A program made the translations under genes and the position numbers. A DNA stretch of 50,894 bases from Acidimicrobiales bacterium. GTDB lineage: Bacteria > Actinomycetota > Acidimicrobiia > Acidimicrobiales > UBA8190. Every line of letters begins with the position of its first letter. The stretch's first letter is position 1. Under the pieces are notes generated by a model, which made no database searches, was not told the DNA's origin, and was given only the letters and a program-made list of their open reading frames with translations. Of this stretch, positions 316 to 43,097 are shown piece after piece. The stretch is from contig DATKSK010000016.1 of the NCBI GenBank assembly GCA_035531755.1, positions 1-50,894 on the forward strand. The letters are read 5' to 3'.

Positions 316-1663
316 ACGGGATCGAGAAACCGGTCGACGTCGGCAGGTAGTTGGAGATCTGCCAGTTCGCCTGCTGGTCCTCACTCCCCACCCGCTCGTC
401 GAAGTTCAGGTTGAAGCTCGGGCTCCCGTTGGCCTTGATCCCGCCCAGGATGATCGATCCCGTCCAGTTGAGCGAGCTCGAGGTGCCGTCCATCGTGAGG
501 ATCATCCCCGGGGCCCAGAGTTCCGCATCGGCGAAGCCGCCACCCAGGTTGGCGTCACCACTGCCCCAGGCGTAGATCTTCAGGTCGGTCGGGTCGCCGA
601 CGAGGCCCCCCTTGCAGATCCCCGACCCCGATCCGATCGTCTCGCACTGGTTGACCGTCGCCGCGCTGAGATCGATGTTGGGGGACGTCGTGGACCCGAC
701 GGGCGGGAACACGAAGATCTGCACCTGACCGTTGTTCTGCTGGGGACTCTGGGCATAGTCCACGTTGACGGTGCCGGTCATGGTGAGCCCACCCCGGCAG
801 GAGTAGATCCCGGGCTCCAGGGTGGCCGGGCCCGTGACCGTGTAACCCGTCGCATCCGTTCCCGTGACCTGCGAGCTCATAGCGGTGCACGCCTGGGTCG
901 GCCCCGGGGGTGACGCGGTCGTGAGCGCCGGCATGCACGGGGTCGGGGGCTCGCCGTAGGGGTTCAGTGGCGCGGGGCAGGTCTGGGAGGGTTGCTGGGG
1001 CGCGTAGATGGGACCGAGGTTCTGGACCGGCGTGCACTTCGAGATCGAGCCTCCGTAGTTGACGTACGTGGCGTTGGGATCGGTGGGGCCGTTGCACGTC
1101 AGCGTGCCTCCGGGCCCGACGGCGATGGCGGCGGTGGCGCCCGGGACCGGGTTCCCGTAGGCGTCGGTGACCTGCAGGTCCGTGGTGGAGTTCCCGTCGA
1201 ACGTGACGAACGCCCCTCCGTAGACGGCATTGGTGATGACGGGGCTGTTCTTGATCGTGACCTGGACCGCGTAGGAGACACCGCGCGACGTCCCTTTGGA
1301 CAGGACCGTGTACGAGTTGCTCGCCGAGCTGTACCGGGCGGTGTAGACGGTCCCGGGTGCGCCGGGGATACCGCTCAGGGTGCAGGCGCCACCGCTGTTG
1401 GGCTCGTTGCAGAACGAGGCGGGTGACGCACCCTCCTGGTCGATCTGGAACAAGGCGTCGGCCACCCCGGACTGCGCCAATGCGCGGGCCTGGGCCATCT
1501 TGGTCTCGAGGTTGGCGTTGTCGAAGTCGCCGAGCACACGGGTGATCATCGCCGAGCTCAACAGCACCACGACGAAGATGATGGACATGACGACGGCGAG
1601 CGAACCGGCCTCGCGGTCTCGGCGGGCCGGGGGACGACGGAGCGGTGGCACGTTCATCAGCAT
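314..1663 (-). CDS. PilX/GspK-like surface protein of the pilin operon
   Basis: This 449-residue protein starts with a basic leader (about 18 residues), then REAG followed by a long hydrophobic helix (residues 21-45). That is the layout of type IV pilin or pseudopilin precursors. Glu at position +5 after the presumed cleavage Gly20 is absent, as in tip-type minor pseudopilins. The rest is a large Gly/Ser/Thr-rich extracellular domain with several cysteines. The ATG at 1663 follows a GGTGAG element; a second ATG at 1657 overlaps the upstream stop as TGATG. It is the last gene of the sigma/pilin operon. The family assignment is by architecture, not by clear sequence match. Confidence 0.7.
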   Translation of the reverse strand: MLMNVPPLRRPPARRDREAGSLAVVMSIIFVVVLLSSAMITRVLGDFDNANLETKMAQARALAQSGVADALFQIDQEGASPASFCNEPNSGGACTLSGIPGAPGTVYTARYSSASNSYTVLSKGTSRGVSYAVQVTIKNSPVITNAVYGGAFVTFDGNSTTDLQVTDAYGNPVPGATAAIAVGPGGTLTCNGPTDPNATYVNYGGSISKCTPVQNLGPIYAPQQPSQTCPAPLNPYGEPPTPCMPALTTASPPGPTQACTAMSSQVTGTDATGYTVTGPATLEPGIYSCRGGLTMTGTVNVDYAQSPQQNNGQVQIFVFPPVGSTTSPNIDLSAATVNQCETIGSGSGICKGGLVGDPTDLKIYAWGSGDANLGGGFADAELWAPGMILTMDGTSSSLNWTGSIILGGIKANGSPSFNLNFDERVGSEDQQANWQISNYLPTSTGFSIP

Positions 1664-2277
1664 CGGCTCACCCCCGGTGCCTGGTTCATGACGTGAACGG
1701 TGGTGGTGGACCCGTACGGCGCCGAGTTGACGTTGGCGACCGACAAGGTCACCTGCACGGCCGTCGTGGCGGCGCTGATGCTCGGAGCGGTCGCCTGGGC
1801 CTGGGTGACGAGGTTGATCGAGCAGTGGTCGTAGTAGCCGAACAGGGGGATCCCGCCGCTGGCCGGGTCGCCGTTGGTGACGTCGGTCAACTGCACGGTG
1901 GCGGTGCCGGAACCGATCTGGCGAGTGAGTTGCCTCGTCGCGTAGCTGTACTGCCAGGTGATGACCTGGTTGGACGGCTGGATCGTCAGCTGGAGCTCGT
2001 CGTTGTAGGCGGCCACGCTCCCGAGCGTTCCCACCGGGTTGGCGGACTGGATGTCGCTCTGCAGCTGCAGCAGCACCAGGCGGACGTTCGCCGCCGAGTT
2101 GGCGCTGTTGACGGTCGAGGCCTCCGCCTTGCTGAAGACCGTCACCATCGTGACCGTGAGCGTGAGCAGGATGATCGAGATGGTCATGGCCACCATCAAC
2201 TCGACCAGGGTGAAGCCCTGCTCGGTGCAAGACGGTGCCCGCCGGCGTTGCGGGCGCGAGCCCAGGGTCTTCAGCAT
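1657..2277 (-). CDS. Type IV prepilin-like protein (PilW/GspJ type)
   Basis: A 206-residue prepilin. The leader ends EQG and is followed by FTLVELMVAMTISIILL, a textbook prepilin peptidase site with cleavage after Gly21 and Glu at +5 (Glu26), and an N-terminal membrane helix at about 22-48. The globular part has the Gln/Asn/Thr-rich beta pattern of minor pilins. It belongs to a surface filament or secretion pseudopilus. ATG 2277 overlaps the end of the preceding prepilin gene by 7 bases, and its stop overlaps the start region of the next gene, so the three are probably translationally coupled. Confidence 0.85.
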   Translation of the reverse strand: MLKTLGSRPQRRRAPSCTEQGFTLVELMVAMTISIILLTLTVTMVTVFSKAEASTVNSANSAANVRLVLLQLQSDIQSANPVGTLGSVAAYNDELQLTIQPSNQVITWQYSYATRQLTRQIGSGTATVQLTDVTNGDPASGGIPLFGYYDHCSINLVTQAQATAPSISAATTAVQVTLSVANVNSAPYGSTTTVHVMNQAPGVSRC

Positions 2278-3608
2278 GCCGCCGACCCGTTGGTCGTGGC
2301 GAACGACACCTGGGCCCAGAGGCTCGTCGGCGAACCGTTGAGCGAGACCGTGTAGAGGTGCGTGCCCGTGGTGAACCCGGCGGCCGGGCACACCGTGTCG
2401 GCGTACTGGGTCGACCCCCACGTGAGGGTGTACGGCGACCCGGGATCGGCGCCGTTCGACGTGGCGGCCACCGTGACGGTGTCAGCGCCACTGGTGCACG
2501 ATCCCGAGTAGGTCACCGTCAGGGACATGGCGCTCGTCAGGTGGAAGTTGGTCTTCTTCACGGTGGCCTGCCCCGAAAGCTGACCGGGCTGGCTGACCGT
2601 CAGGGTGTTGAGGACACAGGACTGGACCGGGGGTGTGAGGGTCGTGGCACTCACCCAGGTCTGTGAGGTCGCCCACATCGTCCCGTCGGACGAGAAGCCC
2701 ACGACCTCGAACCAATACTTCGTGGACGGCGCCAGTCCCGTCACCGTGAAGCTGGTGGCGGTCCCCGCGATCGAGCCGCTCGCCGTCGATCCCGGCAGTT
2801 CCCACGCTCCCGACGTGCCCGATGTGTCCGGCGTCACCAGCGCCAATTGCCCGCCGGGGTCGGGCGCCCAGACCACGTCGTAGAACCCCGTCGGGTCCAC
2901 AGGAGCGGTCCAGACGAGGTTCACCGTCACCTCTCCGGCCGGGTCCACGGGGACGCACGGCGAGACGTCGGCGGGACCGCCGGGGCACGCCGACAGGCCC
3001 GCCACGTTGTCGGGAGCACCGGTCGTGCCCGACGGCGGGGTGTCCTGTGGGCCGGTGTACTTGCCCAGGCCCCCGGGGTACACGAGGATGTTCTGCGTCG
3101 CCGAGACGTTGTGGCCCCCCTCGGACCACGACACCACGGCGTACACCTGCTTGTAGGCGTAGGCGTTCCCGCCCGAGCCGTCCACCCACACGATGTGCGT
3201 CACCTCGGAGAAGACGACGGTGCCCACCTGCTTGAACTGGGTCCCGGTGGGCACCTGGGCCGTCGCCGGGGCCGTCGGGGTGGCGCCCAGGTCGACACCG
3301 GGTTGGCCGTTGTACCCGGGGACCGTCTGCGGTGGCGTGCCGAACTGGTTCTCGTAGAAGCCGAGGTTGGCGTAGCTGATGGCGTTCGCCTTGGCCAGGA
3401 AGCCGTTGGCGATGGCGATGGCGTCGCCGTACTCACGGTTGTAGGCGGAGTTGGTGGCCCCCCAGTAGAAGACGCTCGCCAACGGGAGCAGCACGATGCT
3501 GAGGACTCCCAGGGCCATGACGACCTCCAGGAGGCTCTGGCCCTCGTCGCCGCGCCGGCCGACGCGCCACGTCCGCCCCGGACGGCGGGTGGGCTGCCTA
3601 GCGCCCAC
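2271..3608 (-). CDS. Prepilin-like protein with a fibronectin type III domain
   Basis: 445 residues from a GTG start. Residues 21-23 (DEG) precede QSLLEVVMALGVLSIVLLPL, giving a prepilin cleavage site after Gly23 with Glu at +5 and a helix at about 24-50 (PilV/GspI-like). Residues about 225-323 form a fibronectin type III module: VTVNLVW..., TSFTVTGLAPSTKYWFEVVG and a closing ...WVSATTL. A second beta-rich, Cys-containing domain fills the C terminus. A Fn3 module fused to a pilin core suggests an adhesive or matrix-binding minor pilin. It overlaps the upstream 83-residue gene by 11 bases. Confidence 0.8.
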   Translation of the reverse strand: MGARQPTRRPGRTWRVGRRGDEGQSLLEVVMALGVLSIVLLPLASVFYWGATNSAYNREYGDAIAIANGFLAKANAISYANLGFYENQFGTPPQTVPGYNGQPGVDLGATPTAPATAQVPTGTQFKQVGTVVFSEVTHIVWVDGSGGNAYAYKQVYAVVSWSEGGHNVSATQNILVYPGGLGKYTGPQDTPPSGTTGAPDNVAGLSACPGGPADVSPCVPVDPAGEVTVNLVWTAPVDPTGFYDVVWAPDPGGQLALVTPDTSGTSGAWELPGSTASGSIAGTATSFTVTGLAPSTKYWFEVVGFSSDGTMWATSQTWVSATTLTPPVQSCVLNTLTVSQPGQLSGQATVKKTNFHLTSAMSLTVTYSGSCTSGADTVTVAATSNGADPGSPYTLTWGSTQYADTVCPAAGFTTGTHLYTVSLNGSPTSLWAQVSFATTNGSAAC

Positions 3609-3849
3609 CGGAGTGCCTCCTCGGGATCCCGGCCGCGCCCGCCCGGCGGACGTGCGTCCAGGCCGCCACCAGCCGGTGACCGATCGCCCGCTCGTCCGCG
3701 GTCGCCGGCATCCTGGCCGCCCGCACCAGCACGGCGACGTGCCCGAAGCCGTCAGGGGCGTCGGCCTCGCCGAGCCGGCCCTCGAGGAGGGCGTCGGCGA
3801 CGTCGGGGGCGAGCGCCACGTCGCGGTCGAGCGGGCACAGGGGCATCAT
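3598..3849 (-). CDS. Small hypothetical protein, possible anti-sigma partner
   Basis: This 83-residue protein lies directly after the ECF sigma gene (22-base gap) and overlaps the first prepilin gene. AGGAG immediately precedes the tandem ATG ATG start. The pattern ...DALLEGR...ADAPDGFGHVAVLVRAAR.PATADE resembles, from memory, the short N-terminal regions of actinobacterial anti-sigma factors encoded beside ECF sigma genes. No membrane helix or zinc motif is visible. An anti-sigma role is inferred from position and this resemblance; I cannot name a family with confidence. Confidence 0.55.
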   Translation of the reverse strand: MMPLCPLDRDVALAPDVADALLEGRLGEADAPDGFGHVAVLVRAARMPATADERAIGHRLVAAWTHVRRAGAAGIPRRHSGGR

Positions 3850-3871
3850 CTCCTGGTATCGCCCCCCGGCG

Positions 3872-4432
3872 TCAGGCCGTTACAGCGAGACGGAGCTCCC
3901 GGTGGTCGTGGCGTTCCCGCATGCGGCGCAGCGCCCGGTGCTGGGCCACCCGTACCCACCCCGGGGTGCGGCCCAGGATCCTCGCCACCTCGTCGACGTC
4001 GAGGCCGCCCACCACGCGCAGCACCACGACTTCGGCCTGGTCGGCAGGCAGGTCCCGGACCAGGATCTCGACCGCCCGCTCGGCCGACATCGCTCCCACC
4101 ACGTCGGCCTGGAAGTCGCCGCCCGGAGCTACCGCGTCGACGGCACCGAGGGCGACGGTCCTCGGCCGGCGGTGCTCACGCCGGAAGTGGTCCACGACGC
4201 GGCGGCGGGCGATGGAGAACAGCCAGGAGCGGAAGTCCCCGTCGTCCCCCGCGAACCGGTCGAACCCGTTGGCCACGGCCAACCACGTCTCGGCGGCGAG
4301 GTCCTCGGCCGCCGCGCCGGCGTGGTGGCGGAGGTAGCGCAGGATCTGGGGGTTCAACGCCCGGAACAGGCACGAGAACGCCTCCTCGCTGCCCTCCTGT
4401 GCAGCGCCCACCACGCTCGTCAGCGATTCCAC
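3872..4432 (-). CDS. ECF-type RNA polymerase sigma factor
   Basis: 186 residues, normal ECF length. Region 2 is recognisable at about residues 20-90 (ILRYLRHHAG, DLAAETWLAVANGFDRF, FRSWLFSIARRRVVDHFRR). Region 4 is at about 125-175 (LPADQAEVVVLRVVGGLDVDEVARILGRTPGWVRVAQHRALRRMR) and contains the helix-turn-helix for -35 recognition. It redirects RNA polymerase to a specific regulon, plausibly including its own operon of pilin-like genes. The start is GTG 4432 with no Shine-Dalgarno sequence upstream. The subgroup is not assigned. Confidence 0.92.
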   Translation of the reverse strand: MESLTSVVGAAQEGSEEAFSCLFRALNPQILRYLRHHAGAAAEDLAAETWLAVANGFDRFAGDDGDFRSWLFSIARRRVVDHFRREHRRPRTVALGAVDAVAPGGDFQADVVGAMSAERAVEILVRDLPADQAEVVVLRVVGGLDVDEVARILGRTPGWVRVAQHRALRRMRERHDHRELRLAVTA

Positions 4433-4509
4433 CGTGTAGTAATCGGCAGAGGGCGGCCATTGATGAAGCCCCGATGCCGGGCGGTCCTGCGAGCCGGGGC
4501 CCGGACCGG

Positions 4510-5508
4510 TCAGGCCGACTTGCCCCGTCGGAACGAGGCCAGGAGTTTGCCGCGCTTGCTCACCAGGGAGACGTCACTCGACTCGATGTGGATGTCGTCG
4601 TCGATGGCCCTCTCCCCGGCGTGCTCGGCGGTGCCCGGCAGTGAGTCGAGGGCGTCCATGACCTCGGCGGCGATCCCCGGAGAGGTGAAGGCGCCGCCGT
4701 CGAGGTCGGCGCCGCCGTCGTCGTCCCCGTCGTCGTCCCCGCCGATCGACCACAGGGGGAACACCGGCAGCGGCTCCATCGTCGTCAGGGTGAGGGCGTC
4801 CTCGACTGCCAGTGGAGGGGCGAAGAAGTACCCCTGGCCCACGTCGGCCCCCAGCTCCCGCAGGATCTTGACCTGCTTGGCGGTCTCGACGCTCTCCGCC
4901 ACCGTGCAGATGCCGAGCGAGTGGCTGACGTGCACGATGGTCTCCACCATGGCCCGGCTGACGCCGGTGGGGTCCGCCAGGCCCTCGATGAGGGTGCCGT
5001 CGATCTTCATGGTGTTGATGGAGAATTGCCCCATGCTCTCGATCGTCGACCAGTCCGACCCGATGTCGTCCACCGTCAGCTGGATCCCGAGGCGCGACAT
5101 GGCGTGCAAGTCGGCGGCCGCCCCGTCGTCGGTGACGCTGGTCTCGGTGATCTCGATGGTGAGCCGGTCGGGGTTGAGCCCCGACTCCTCGAGCGCGGCG
5201 GCCGCCGCGGAGGCCGCCTCGCGCTGGCGGAGCTGGAACACCGAGCAGTTCACGGCCAGCTGGAGGTCCGACTGCCAGGACGCCGCCGCCGCGCAGGCCT
5301 CGGACAACACCCAGGCGTTGAGCTCCACCATGTGGCCGTTGGACTCCGCCCACGGGATGAGGACGCTCGGGGGGATCGGCCCCAGGTCGGGGTCGTTCCA
5401 GCGGAGCAGGGCCTCGAAGCCGAGCAGGCGACCGGTGGCGAGGTCGACGGCGGGCTGGAAGACGAGCTCGGGCTCGCCGTCGAGGCCGAGTTCGGGTCGT
5501 GCCCTCAC
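4510..5508 (-). CDS. EAL-domain cyclic-di-GMP phosphodiesterase
   Basis: 332 residues from a GTG start. The protein is essentially a lone EAL domain (residues about 10-240) with a charged tail holding an Asp/Gly run. The domain would hydrolyse c-di-GMP to pGpG. The metal and catalytic residues are present: EAL at 32-34, Asn87, Glu119 in IEITE, Asp147-Asp148, Lys168, and Glu205/Glu208 in AESVET, plus QGYFF. Loop 6 reads DDIGSDWS instead of DDFGTGYS, so activity may be altered. There is no N-terminal sensor or membrane helix. It stands alone between complex I and the sigma/pilin operon. Confidence 0.88.
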   Translation of the reverse strand: MRARPELGLDGEPELVFQPAVDLATGRLLGFEALLRWNDPDLGPIPPSVLIPWAESNGHMVELNAWVLSEACAAAASWQSDLQLAVNCSVFQLRQREAASAAAAALEESGLNPDRLTIEITETSVTDDGAAADLHAMSRLGIQLTVDDIGSDWSTIESMGQFSINTMKIDGTLIEGLADPTGVSRAMVETIVHVSHSLGICTVAESVETAKQVKILRELGADVGQGYFFAPPLAVEDALTLTTMEPLPVFPLWSIGGDDDGDDDGGADLDGGAFTSPGIAAEVMDALDSLPGTAEHAGERAIDDDIHIESSDVSLVSKRGKLLASFRRGKSA

Positions 5509-5590
5509 GACGACTGCCCGGCGGTCCTTGTAGTCACAGGTATGGCATCGGCGGAGGGACCCCGGTCCTTGAGCGCGCCTCGGGACGGGA

Positions 5591-42005: not shown

Positions 42006-42515
42006 CTACACCTCCGCCGTCTTGCCCCGGGCGCCCCCCGAGCCGTTCCCGGCGGGGTGGGCTCGGGCGACCGCCCCGGCCGTCCCGGCCGCCCCGGCCG
42101 TCCCGGCCGCCCCCGCCGCCCCCGCCGTCCCGGCCGCCTCGTCGTCGGCGACGGGCTCGGGCTGGACGTCGTTCTCGTGGCGGAACGACAGGTAGATGCG
42201 GATCAGCGCCTGCTTCTGCTCCTCGGTGAGGTGGGGGTCGGCGAGGATCTCGCGCCCCAGGTCCGTCTCACCGTTGCCGGGCTCGAGGATCCCGGCCTGG
42301 ACGTAGAGGGTCTCAGCCGAGATGCGCAGGGCCTTGGCGATCTGTTGGAGGATCTCCGCCGAGGGTCGGCGCAACCCGCGCTCGATCTGGCTGAGGTAGG
42401 GGTTGGAGATGCCCGCCAGCTCCGACAGGCGCCGCAGCGACAGCCGCGCCGTCGAGCGCTGCTCCCGGATGAACGACCCCAGGTCCCGCCAGCGGTCCGG
42501 GAGCTGCTTGGGCAC
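42006..42515 (-). CDS. XRE-family helix-turn-helix regulator with repetitive tail
   Basis: 169 residues. Residues about 12-66 are an XRE HTH: LGSFIREQRSTARLSLRRLSELAGISNPYLSQIERGLRRPSAEILQQIAKAL. A middle helical region (GREILADPHLTEEQKQALIRIYLSFR) resembles the actinobacterial regulators of about 140 residues that I associate with the Rv0474 group. The tail holds AGTAGAAGAAGTAGAAG repeats. GAGGAGG precedes GTG 42515. It lies 42 bases after rsiG and is probably in the same operon. Confidence 0.88.
   Translation of the reverse strand: MPKQLPDRWRDLGSFIREQRSTARLSLRRLSELAGISNPYLSQIERGLRRPSAEILQQIAKALRISAETLYVQAGILEPGNGETDLGREILADPHLTEEQKQALIRIYLSFRHENDVQPEPVADDEAAGTAGAAGAAGTAGAAGTAGAVARAHPAGNGSGGARGKTAEV
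42072..42134 (-). repeat. In-frame Ala-Gly-Thr/Ala 9-bp repeat tract
   Basis: Repeats of GCCGGG-type codons encode (A-G-T/A)n at residues 128-148 of the XRE regulator, after its conserved domains. Confidence 0.75.
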
Positions 42516-42557: not shown

Positions 42558-43097
42558 TCAGGCCAGCAGGCCGTCGACGGACGCCTCGCCCGTCTTGTAG
42601 CGGCTCACGATCTCGGCCTGGAGCGTGTCGATGCGCTCGTGCAGGGCCCGGCGCTGGTCCGAGATGCGCGTCTCGATCTCCGTGAGGCGGTCGCCCACGG
42701 CCCGCAGCTCGTCGTCGCCCATGGTCGGCAGCGCCCCGATGTGGTCGGCGTCGAGCACGCCGTCGATCTCCTCGGTGAGGTCGGTGCTGTCGAGGTCCGG
42801 GGACATCTGCGACGGCAGCCGGCCGTACCCCGACGGGCGGGCCGGCCCCGAGCCGATGATGGACGGCAGCCGCTCCACGAGGGAGTCGAGCCCGCCGCTC
42901 TCCCCCTCGGCACGGTCGAGGCAGGCGTGCACGAGGTCGAGCCGGCCCTGGGCCAGCCGCCGCAGGAACGACACCGCCGTCTCGGCCGCCTGGCACTCGG
43001 CGCGCATGGCGCGCACCTCCTCGAGGGAACGGGTATTCACCCCGTCGAGGTAGTGGGGGGCGAGCAACCGGTCGAGCTCGGTGTCCAGCGACGCCAT
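42558..43097 (-). CDS. rsiG: RsiG-type cyclic-di-GMP-binding anti-sigma factor
   Basis: 179 residues. The N terminus LDRLLAPHYLDGV..RSLEEVRAMRAECQAAETAVSFLRRLAQGRLDLV matches the RsiG family. The c-di-GMP signature E(x3)S(x2)R(x3)Q(x3)D is complete at Glu39, Ser43, Arg46, Gln50 and Asp54. A second copy lies at Glu142, Ser146, Arg149, His153 and Asp157, with His in place of Gln. In Streptomyces, RsiG bound to c-di-GMP holds the sporulation/flagellar-type sigma factor WhiG. No WhiG-type gene is in this window. ATG 43097 follows a TACGAT leaderless box. Confidence 0.87.
   Translation of the reverse strand: MASLDTELDRLLAPHYLDGVNTRSLEEVRAMRAECQAAETAVSFLRRLAQGRLDLVHACLDRAEGESGGLDSLVERLPSIIGSGPARPSGYGRLPSQMSPDLDSTDLTEEIDGVLDADHIGALPTMGDDELRAVGDRLTEIETRISDQRRALHERIDTLQAEIVSRYKTGEASVDGLLA

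What the first reader, a model, noticed from the sequence alone, without database searches (positions are those of the whole stretch)
42558..43097. RsiG-like anti-sigma factor with two c-di-GMP motifs, second one altered (Gln to His)
The E(x3)S(x2)R(x3)Q(x3)D motif is complete at residues 39-54, and a second copy at 142-157 has His153 instead of Gln. Published work on Streptomyces RsiG shows this motif on both helices of a coiled coil that binds two c-di-GMP molecules and then WhiG. The substitution could change ligand affinity or stoichiometry. The co-transcribed XRE regulator (42006-42515) may be a further component.
Basis: partly seen in the sequence, partly recalled or inferred. Interest (0 to 1): 0.6.

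Follow-up and report, generated by a model that had tools for sequence, protein, structure and literature searches.

The report
Acidimicrobial c-di-GMP-controlled anti-sigma factor RsiG
This gene encodes an ordinary member of a known switch protein (RsiG) that, when the signal molecule c-di-GMP is plentiful, should lock away the sigma factor WhiG; the 'altered' histidine is normal in this bacterial class, and sequence evidence suggests that here the switch governs flagella, pili and c-di-GMP enzymes.

Summary
In detail: 42558-43097(-) encodes 179 aa with E-S-R-Q-D at 39-54 and E-S-R-H-D at 142-157. It is a genuine twin-motif RsiG (Pfam PF22802, 2e-26; only confident fold matches are the four S. 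venezuelae RsiG chains). The genome encodes one WhiG orthologue and 24 GGDEF domains. His153 is not a special alteration: in 80 class RsiGs this position is His 53, Phe 17, Gln 9, Tyr 1, and the 2021 RsiG paper already reports Gln/His exchange (in helix 1) and c-di-GMP binding by a His-type RsiG. The XRE gene is next to rsiG in 47/78 class loci but is separable and absent beside Streptomyces-like rsiG, so it is no obligate component. New here: RsiG and WhiG co-occur across 296 class genomes (176 both, 99 neither), and WhiG-type sites TMAA-N16-GCCGATA are 8.2-fold above a mirrored control where both occur, not where neither does. In this genome they precede pilA, pilM, a pilus ATPase, flgB, flhA, seven GGDEF genes and, in the window, an EAL gene followed by an ECF sigma and minor-pilin genes. 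Most likely a c-di-GMP-gated switch for motility genes; binding and regulation are inferred, not shown.

The parts
42558..43097 (-). rsiG: twin-motif RsiG-family anti-sigma factor, 179 aa
42936..42983 (-). c-di-GMP motif 1, residues 39-54, E(x3)S(x2)R(x3)Q(x3)D, helix 25-63
42627..42674 (-). c-di-GMP motif 2, residues 142-157, E(x3)S(x2)R(x3)H(x3)D, helix 128-169; His153 codon at 42639-42641
42006..42515 (-). XRE-type helix-turn-helix regulator, 169 aa, 42 nt downstream of rsiG; frequent neighbour in the class, not an obligate part of the switch
5546..5572 (-). predicted WhiG-type promoter site TCAA-N16-GCCGATG (one mismatch to TMAA-N16-GCCGATA), 37 nt before the EAL gene
4510..5508 (-). EAL-domain gene (candidate c-di-GMP phosphodiesterase), predicted WhiG target
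   Evidence: (PF00563, 2.7e-56)
3872..4432 (-). ECF-type sigma factor gene downstream of the EAL gene on the same strand; possible member of the same transcript
   Evidence: (PF04542, 6e-14)
1657..3608 (-). minor-pilin-like genes (ORF 2271-3608 with an N-terminal pilin-like segment and an fn3 domain; ORF 1657-2421 with N_methyl); possible members of the same transcript, start codons uncertain

Best explanation
The gene encodes the RsiG anti-sigma factor of an Acidimicrobiia-class actinobacterium. By homology, one polypeptide folds into an antiparallel two-helix coiled coil; the motif on each helix holds one side of a c-di-GMP dimer, and only the loaded protein binds and inactivates the sigma factor WhiG encoded elsewhere in the genome (C3:68331-69008). 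His153 takes the guanine-stacking role of the S. venezuelae Gln. When c-di-GMP falls, WhiG is released and transcribes from TMAA-N16-GCCGATA promoters that lead type IV pilus genes, flagellar operons and c-di-GMP enzymes, giving a sessile/motile switch with feedback. Shown: family, predicted fold, WhiG presence, co-occurrence, motif enrichment and target positions. Inferred: c-di-GMP binding, WhiG binding, promoter activity and direction of regulation.
For: Pfam RsiG 2.2e-26, two stretches; phmmer to 6pfj/6pfv RsiG 1.4e-14. AlphaFold2 model pLDDT 88, pTM 0.80, helices 25-63 and 128-169; the only PDB fold matches below E 1e-3 are the four S. venezuelae RsiG chains, TM 0.61-0.66. One sigma over the FliA/WhiG cut-off, 268 bits, 321 bits to S. 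venezuelae WhiG, lying between a tyrosine-recombinase-like ORF and an rpsB-like ORF. 24 GGDEF domains. RsiG/WhiG co-occurrence 176 both, 7 and 14 single, 99 neither, Fisher about 1e-53 (about 3e-35 without one reduced-genome family; shared ancestry not corrected). Sites: 36 vs 1 mirrored control in this genome; over the class, exact sites 696 vs 85 control with both proteins, 62 vs 72 with neither. Downstream: pilin, PilM, MshEN-type ATPase, FlhA, FlgB, GGDEF and EAL genes; 7 of 36 sites lead GGDEF genes, hypergeometric about 4e-9.
Against: No binding or expression data. Two of the three c-di-GMP-contacting WhiG residues are kept (Lys, Arg), but Gly61 of S. venezuelae is Ala here, whereas 19 of 20 class WhiGs have Gly. 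The site consensus was refined on this genome before being tested on others; the C spelling of the -35 element is my own finding. Sites in other families precede varied genes, so the target list may hold for this genome only. Some one-mismatch sites lie inside or far from genes.
Confidence: 0.8

Rival explanations
1. His153 changes the ligand affinity or stoichiometry, so this RsiG works differently from the Streptomyces protein.
For: Gln is kept at this place in all 11 Streptomyces-like loci examined; in PMC8325347 the single-motif His-type RsiG bound probe with Kd 25 uM against 12 uM for a Gln-type one.
Against: His is the commonest residue there in the class (53/80) and Phe is common too (17/80), while Ser and Arg never change; the paper regards His as able to make the same stacking contact. 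The Kd difference compares proteins of two different species.
Confidence: 0.1
2. The downstream XRE regulator is a further component of the switch.
For: Next gene on the same strand in 47 of 78 class loci, 42 nt away here.
Against: 31 of 78 loci lack it there; none of 11 Streptomyces-like loci has it adjacent; it occurs in genomes without RsiG, and RsiG occurs in genomes without a hit at this threshold or with the XRE gene on another contig. It looks like conserved gene order.
Confidence: 0.12
3. The TMAA-N16-GCCGATA sites serve another sigma factor or are chance matches.
For: Several one-mismatch sites lie inside genes or lead genes with no link to motility.
Against: The -10 part equals the published flagellar/WhiG consensus; enrichment disappears in genomes with neither protein and persists in the 14 with WhiG only, 27 sites against 2 control; targets match known WhiG target types.
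Confidence: 0.1

Closest known systems
Streptomyces venezuelae RsiG (PDB 6pfj, 6pfv)
   Same: Twin-motif single chain, antiparallel coiled coil, sequence match over residues 23-179, WhiG partner
   Different: His instead of Gln at the stacking place of the second helix; predicted targets are motility and c-di-GMP genes rather than sporulation genes
Rubrobacter radiotolerans RsiG (PDB 7lq2, 7lq3, 7lq4)
   Same: Same motif and WhiG partner; predicted targets likewise include type IV pilus and DGC/PDE genes (PMC8325347)
   Different: Rubrobacter RsiG is a small one-motif homodimer; here one chain has two motifs, and flagellar operons are also predicted targets
WhiG-like flagellar sigma factors of Actinoplanes zoospores
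   Same: WhiG-like sigma factors direct both flagellar and type IV pilus genes (as summarised in PMC8325347)
   Different: Actinoplanes lacks RsiG according to the same paper

Membership tests
RsiG | Sequence family match | tested here: met
   PF22802, 91.7 bits against a cut-off of 27
RsiG | E(x3)S(x2)R(x3)[Q/H](x3)D motif on each of two helices | tested here: met
   Residues 39-54 (Q) and 142-157 (H), both inside long predicted helices
RsiG | Antiparallel two-helix coiled-coil fold | tested here: met
   Predicted model pLDDT 88, best matches 6pfv and 6pfj; prediction only
RsiG | Cognate WhiG sigma factor in the genome | tested here: met
   L002, 268 bits to FliA_WhiG, 3.2e-95 to S. venezuelae WhiG
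RsiG | WhiG residues that contact c-di-GMP (K57, G61, R62 in S. venezuelae) conserved | tested here: inconclusive
   Lys and Arg kept, Gly replaced by Ala in this genome; 19 of 20 class WhiGs keep all three
RsiG | Binds a c-di-GMP dimer and then WhiG | not testable with these tools
   Needs protein biochemistry

The most novel reading that the evidence does not exclude
Probability: 0.6. Interest if true: 0.5.

Novelty: new member of a known kind. Interest (0 to 1): 0.35.

Why it matters
RsiG-WhiG is described as the only known sigma/anti-sigma pair targeted by c-di-GMP (PMC8325347), with targets examined in Streptomyces and Rubrobacter. If the predicted targets hold, a class of mostly uncultured actinobacteria uses the two-motif form for motility, which would suggest that sporulation control in Streptomyces was a later use of a motility switch. 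It also gives a promoter motif that can be searched in metagenome-assembled genomes.

Tried and rejected
N15 spacing for the promoter pattern: 12 hits against 7 in the mirrored control, no clear enrichment. His153 as a distinguishing substitution: rejected by class frequencies. XRE as an obligate partner: rejected by separability. A named chromosome record was not in the collections. NCBIfam gave no useful name for either protein. A first extraction of target proteins was in the wrong orientation and was redone. Literature search for RsiG in Acidimicrobiia gave only the 2021 paper as relevant; the combined search for flagella, type IV pili and c-di-GMP gave the same paper.

Full report
Observation. 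The ORF at 42558-43097(-) encodes 179 aa. An XRE-type helix-turn-helix gene starts 42 nt after the rsiG stop.

Family and fold. Pfam RsiG (PF22802) matches in two stretches at 2.2e-26. phmmer against PDB sequences finds S. venezuelae RsiG (6pfj, 6pfv) at 1.4e-14 over residues 23-179, then the Rubrobacter RsiG chains more weakly. An AlphaFold2 model from 78 class sequences has mean pLDDT 88 and pTM 0.80, with long helices 25-63 and 128-169 that carry the two motifs. Foldseek against the PDB gives only four matches below E 1e-3, all S. venezuelae RsiG chains. The protein is therefore a twin-motif RsiG. Relatives at 49-80% identity are in MAGs labelled Acidimicrobiales, Acidimicrobiaceae and, in two cases, Actinomycetes, so I place the genome in the class Acidimicrobiia.

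The histidine. In 80 class RsiGs the stacking position is Gln 61 / His 19 in helix 1 and His 53 / Phe 17 / Gln 9 / Tyr 1 in helix 2; the pair Gln/His, as here, is the commonest (43). Ser and Arg of both motifs are invariant. PMC8325347 reports that the helix 1 Gln is often His, that His is suitable for the same stacking, and that the His-type single-motif RsiG of Conexibacter woesei binds c-di-GMP. His153 is thus a clade feature, not a lesion. Phe at this place in 17 sequences is not mentioned in the parts of that paper I read.

The partner. This genome has one sigma factor over the FliA/WhiG cut-off, which aligns to S. venezuelae WhiG at 3.2e-95 and lies between a tyrosine-recombinase-like ORF and an rpsB-like ORF (these two named by eye). 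Of the three WhiG residues that touch c-di-GMP in S. venezuelae, Lys and Arg are kept and Gly is Ala here; 19 of 20 class WhiGs have Gly. The genome has 24 GGDEF domains, so c-di-GMP is expected to be made.

Co-occurrence. Of 296 class genomes, 176 have both RsiG and WhiG, 7 only RsiG, 14 only WhiG, 99 neither. Without one family of reduced genomes the counts are 176, 7, 14, 57. The p-values ignore shared ancestry.

Promoter sites. The published flagellar consensus is TAAA and GCCGATAA. With N16 spacing and two mismatches this genome has 24 matches against 6 for the mirrored pattern. Many read TCAA-N16-GCCGATA. The refined pattern TMAA-N16-GCCGATA with one mismatch gives 36 against 1. Tested over the class with no mismatch, the pattern occurs 696 times against 85 control in genomes with both proteins, 27 against 2 with WhiG only, and 62 against 72 in genomes with neither. 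The refinement used this genome only, so the other 295 genomes are an independent test.

Targets in this genome. Sites lie before a type IV pilin (N_methyl), PilM, an MshEN-domain ATPase, FlhA (FHIPEP), a FlgB-like rod protein, an ice-binding-like protein, and an EAL gene inside the window. The pilus sites lie on C5 among pilC-, pilT- and prepilin-peptidase-like genes, and the flagellar sites on C41 among fliE-, fliF- and fliG-like genes (several of these names are by eye from the translation). Seven of the 36 sites lead genes with GGDEF domains, by matching coordinates; hypergeometric about 4e-9 for a genome of 2,900-3,500 genes. In the window the EAL gene is followed on the same strand by an ECF sigma gene and minor-pilin-like genes. 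At 40 fetched sites from other genomes the downstream genes are more varied, with GGDEF-like, CheY-like, pilin-like, glycosyltransferase and, in one genome, rsiG itself (named by eye). The target set therefore differs between families.

The XRE gene. It is next to rsiG in 47 of 78 class loci, not next to rsiG in the Streptomyces-like loci, present in class genomes without RsiG and often on another contig where both exist. I read this as gene order, not function.

Mechanism. The most likely mechanism is the published one: c-di-GMP loads RsiG, which then holds WhiG; falling c-di-GMP frees WhiG. Here the freed sigma would switch on pili, flagella and c-di-GMP enzymes. Binding, promoter use and direction are inferred.

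Verdict. A real and correctly spotted gene, an ordinary member of a known family, with a histidine that is normal for its class. The added value is the predicted regulon, which is an extension of the Rubrobacter result to a twin-motif RsiG and to flagellar genes, and which is directly testable.

Noticed in passing
window 1657-5572(-): A WhiG-type site, an EAL gene, an ECF sigma gene and minor-pilin-like genes follow one another on one strand; a possible pilus operon with its own c-di-GMP enzyme.
   Followed up: partly
L002 1501-2178: This WhiG has Ala where S. venezuelae Gly61 and 19 of 20 class WhiGs have Gly, at a c-di-GMP contact; more unusual in the class than His153.
   Followed up: partly
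alignment A1, column of residue 153 (window 42639-42641): Phe replaces Gln/His at the helix 2 stacking place in 17 of 80 class RsiGs.
   Followed up: no
L238 (G161:C25:71400-74300), site at 829: An exact WhiG-type site lies 71 nt before rsiG itself, suggesting feedback on the anti-sigma gene in that genome.
   Followed up: no
L136: The pilus ATPase-like gene behind a WhiG-type site has two MshEN matches, a domain family known to bind c-di-GMP (own knowledge), so c-di-GMP may act on pili at two levels.
   Followed up: no
window 42006-42170(-): The XRE protein ends in a low-complexity Gly-Ala-Thr repeat tail of about 30 residues.
   Followed up: no
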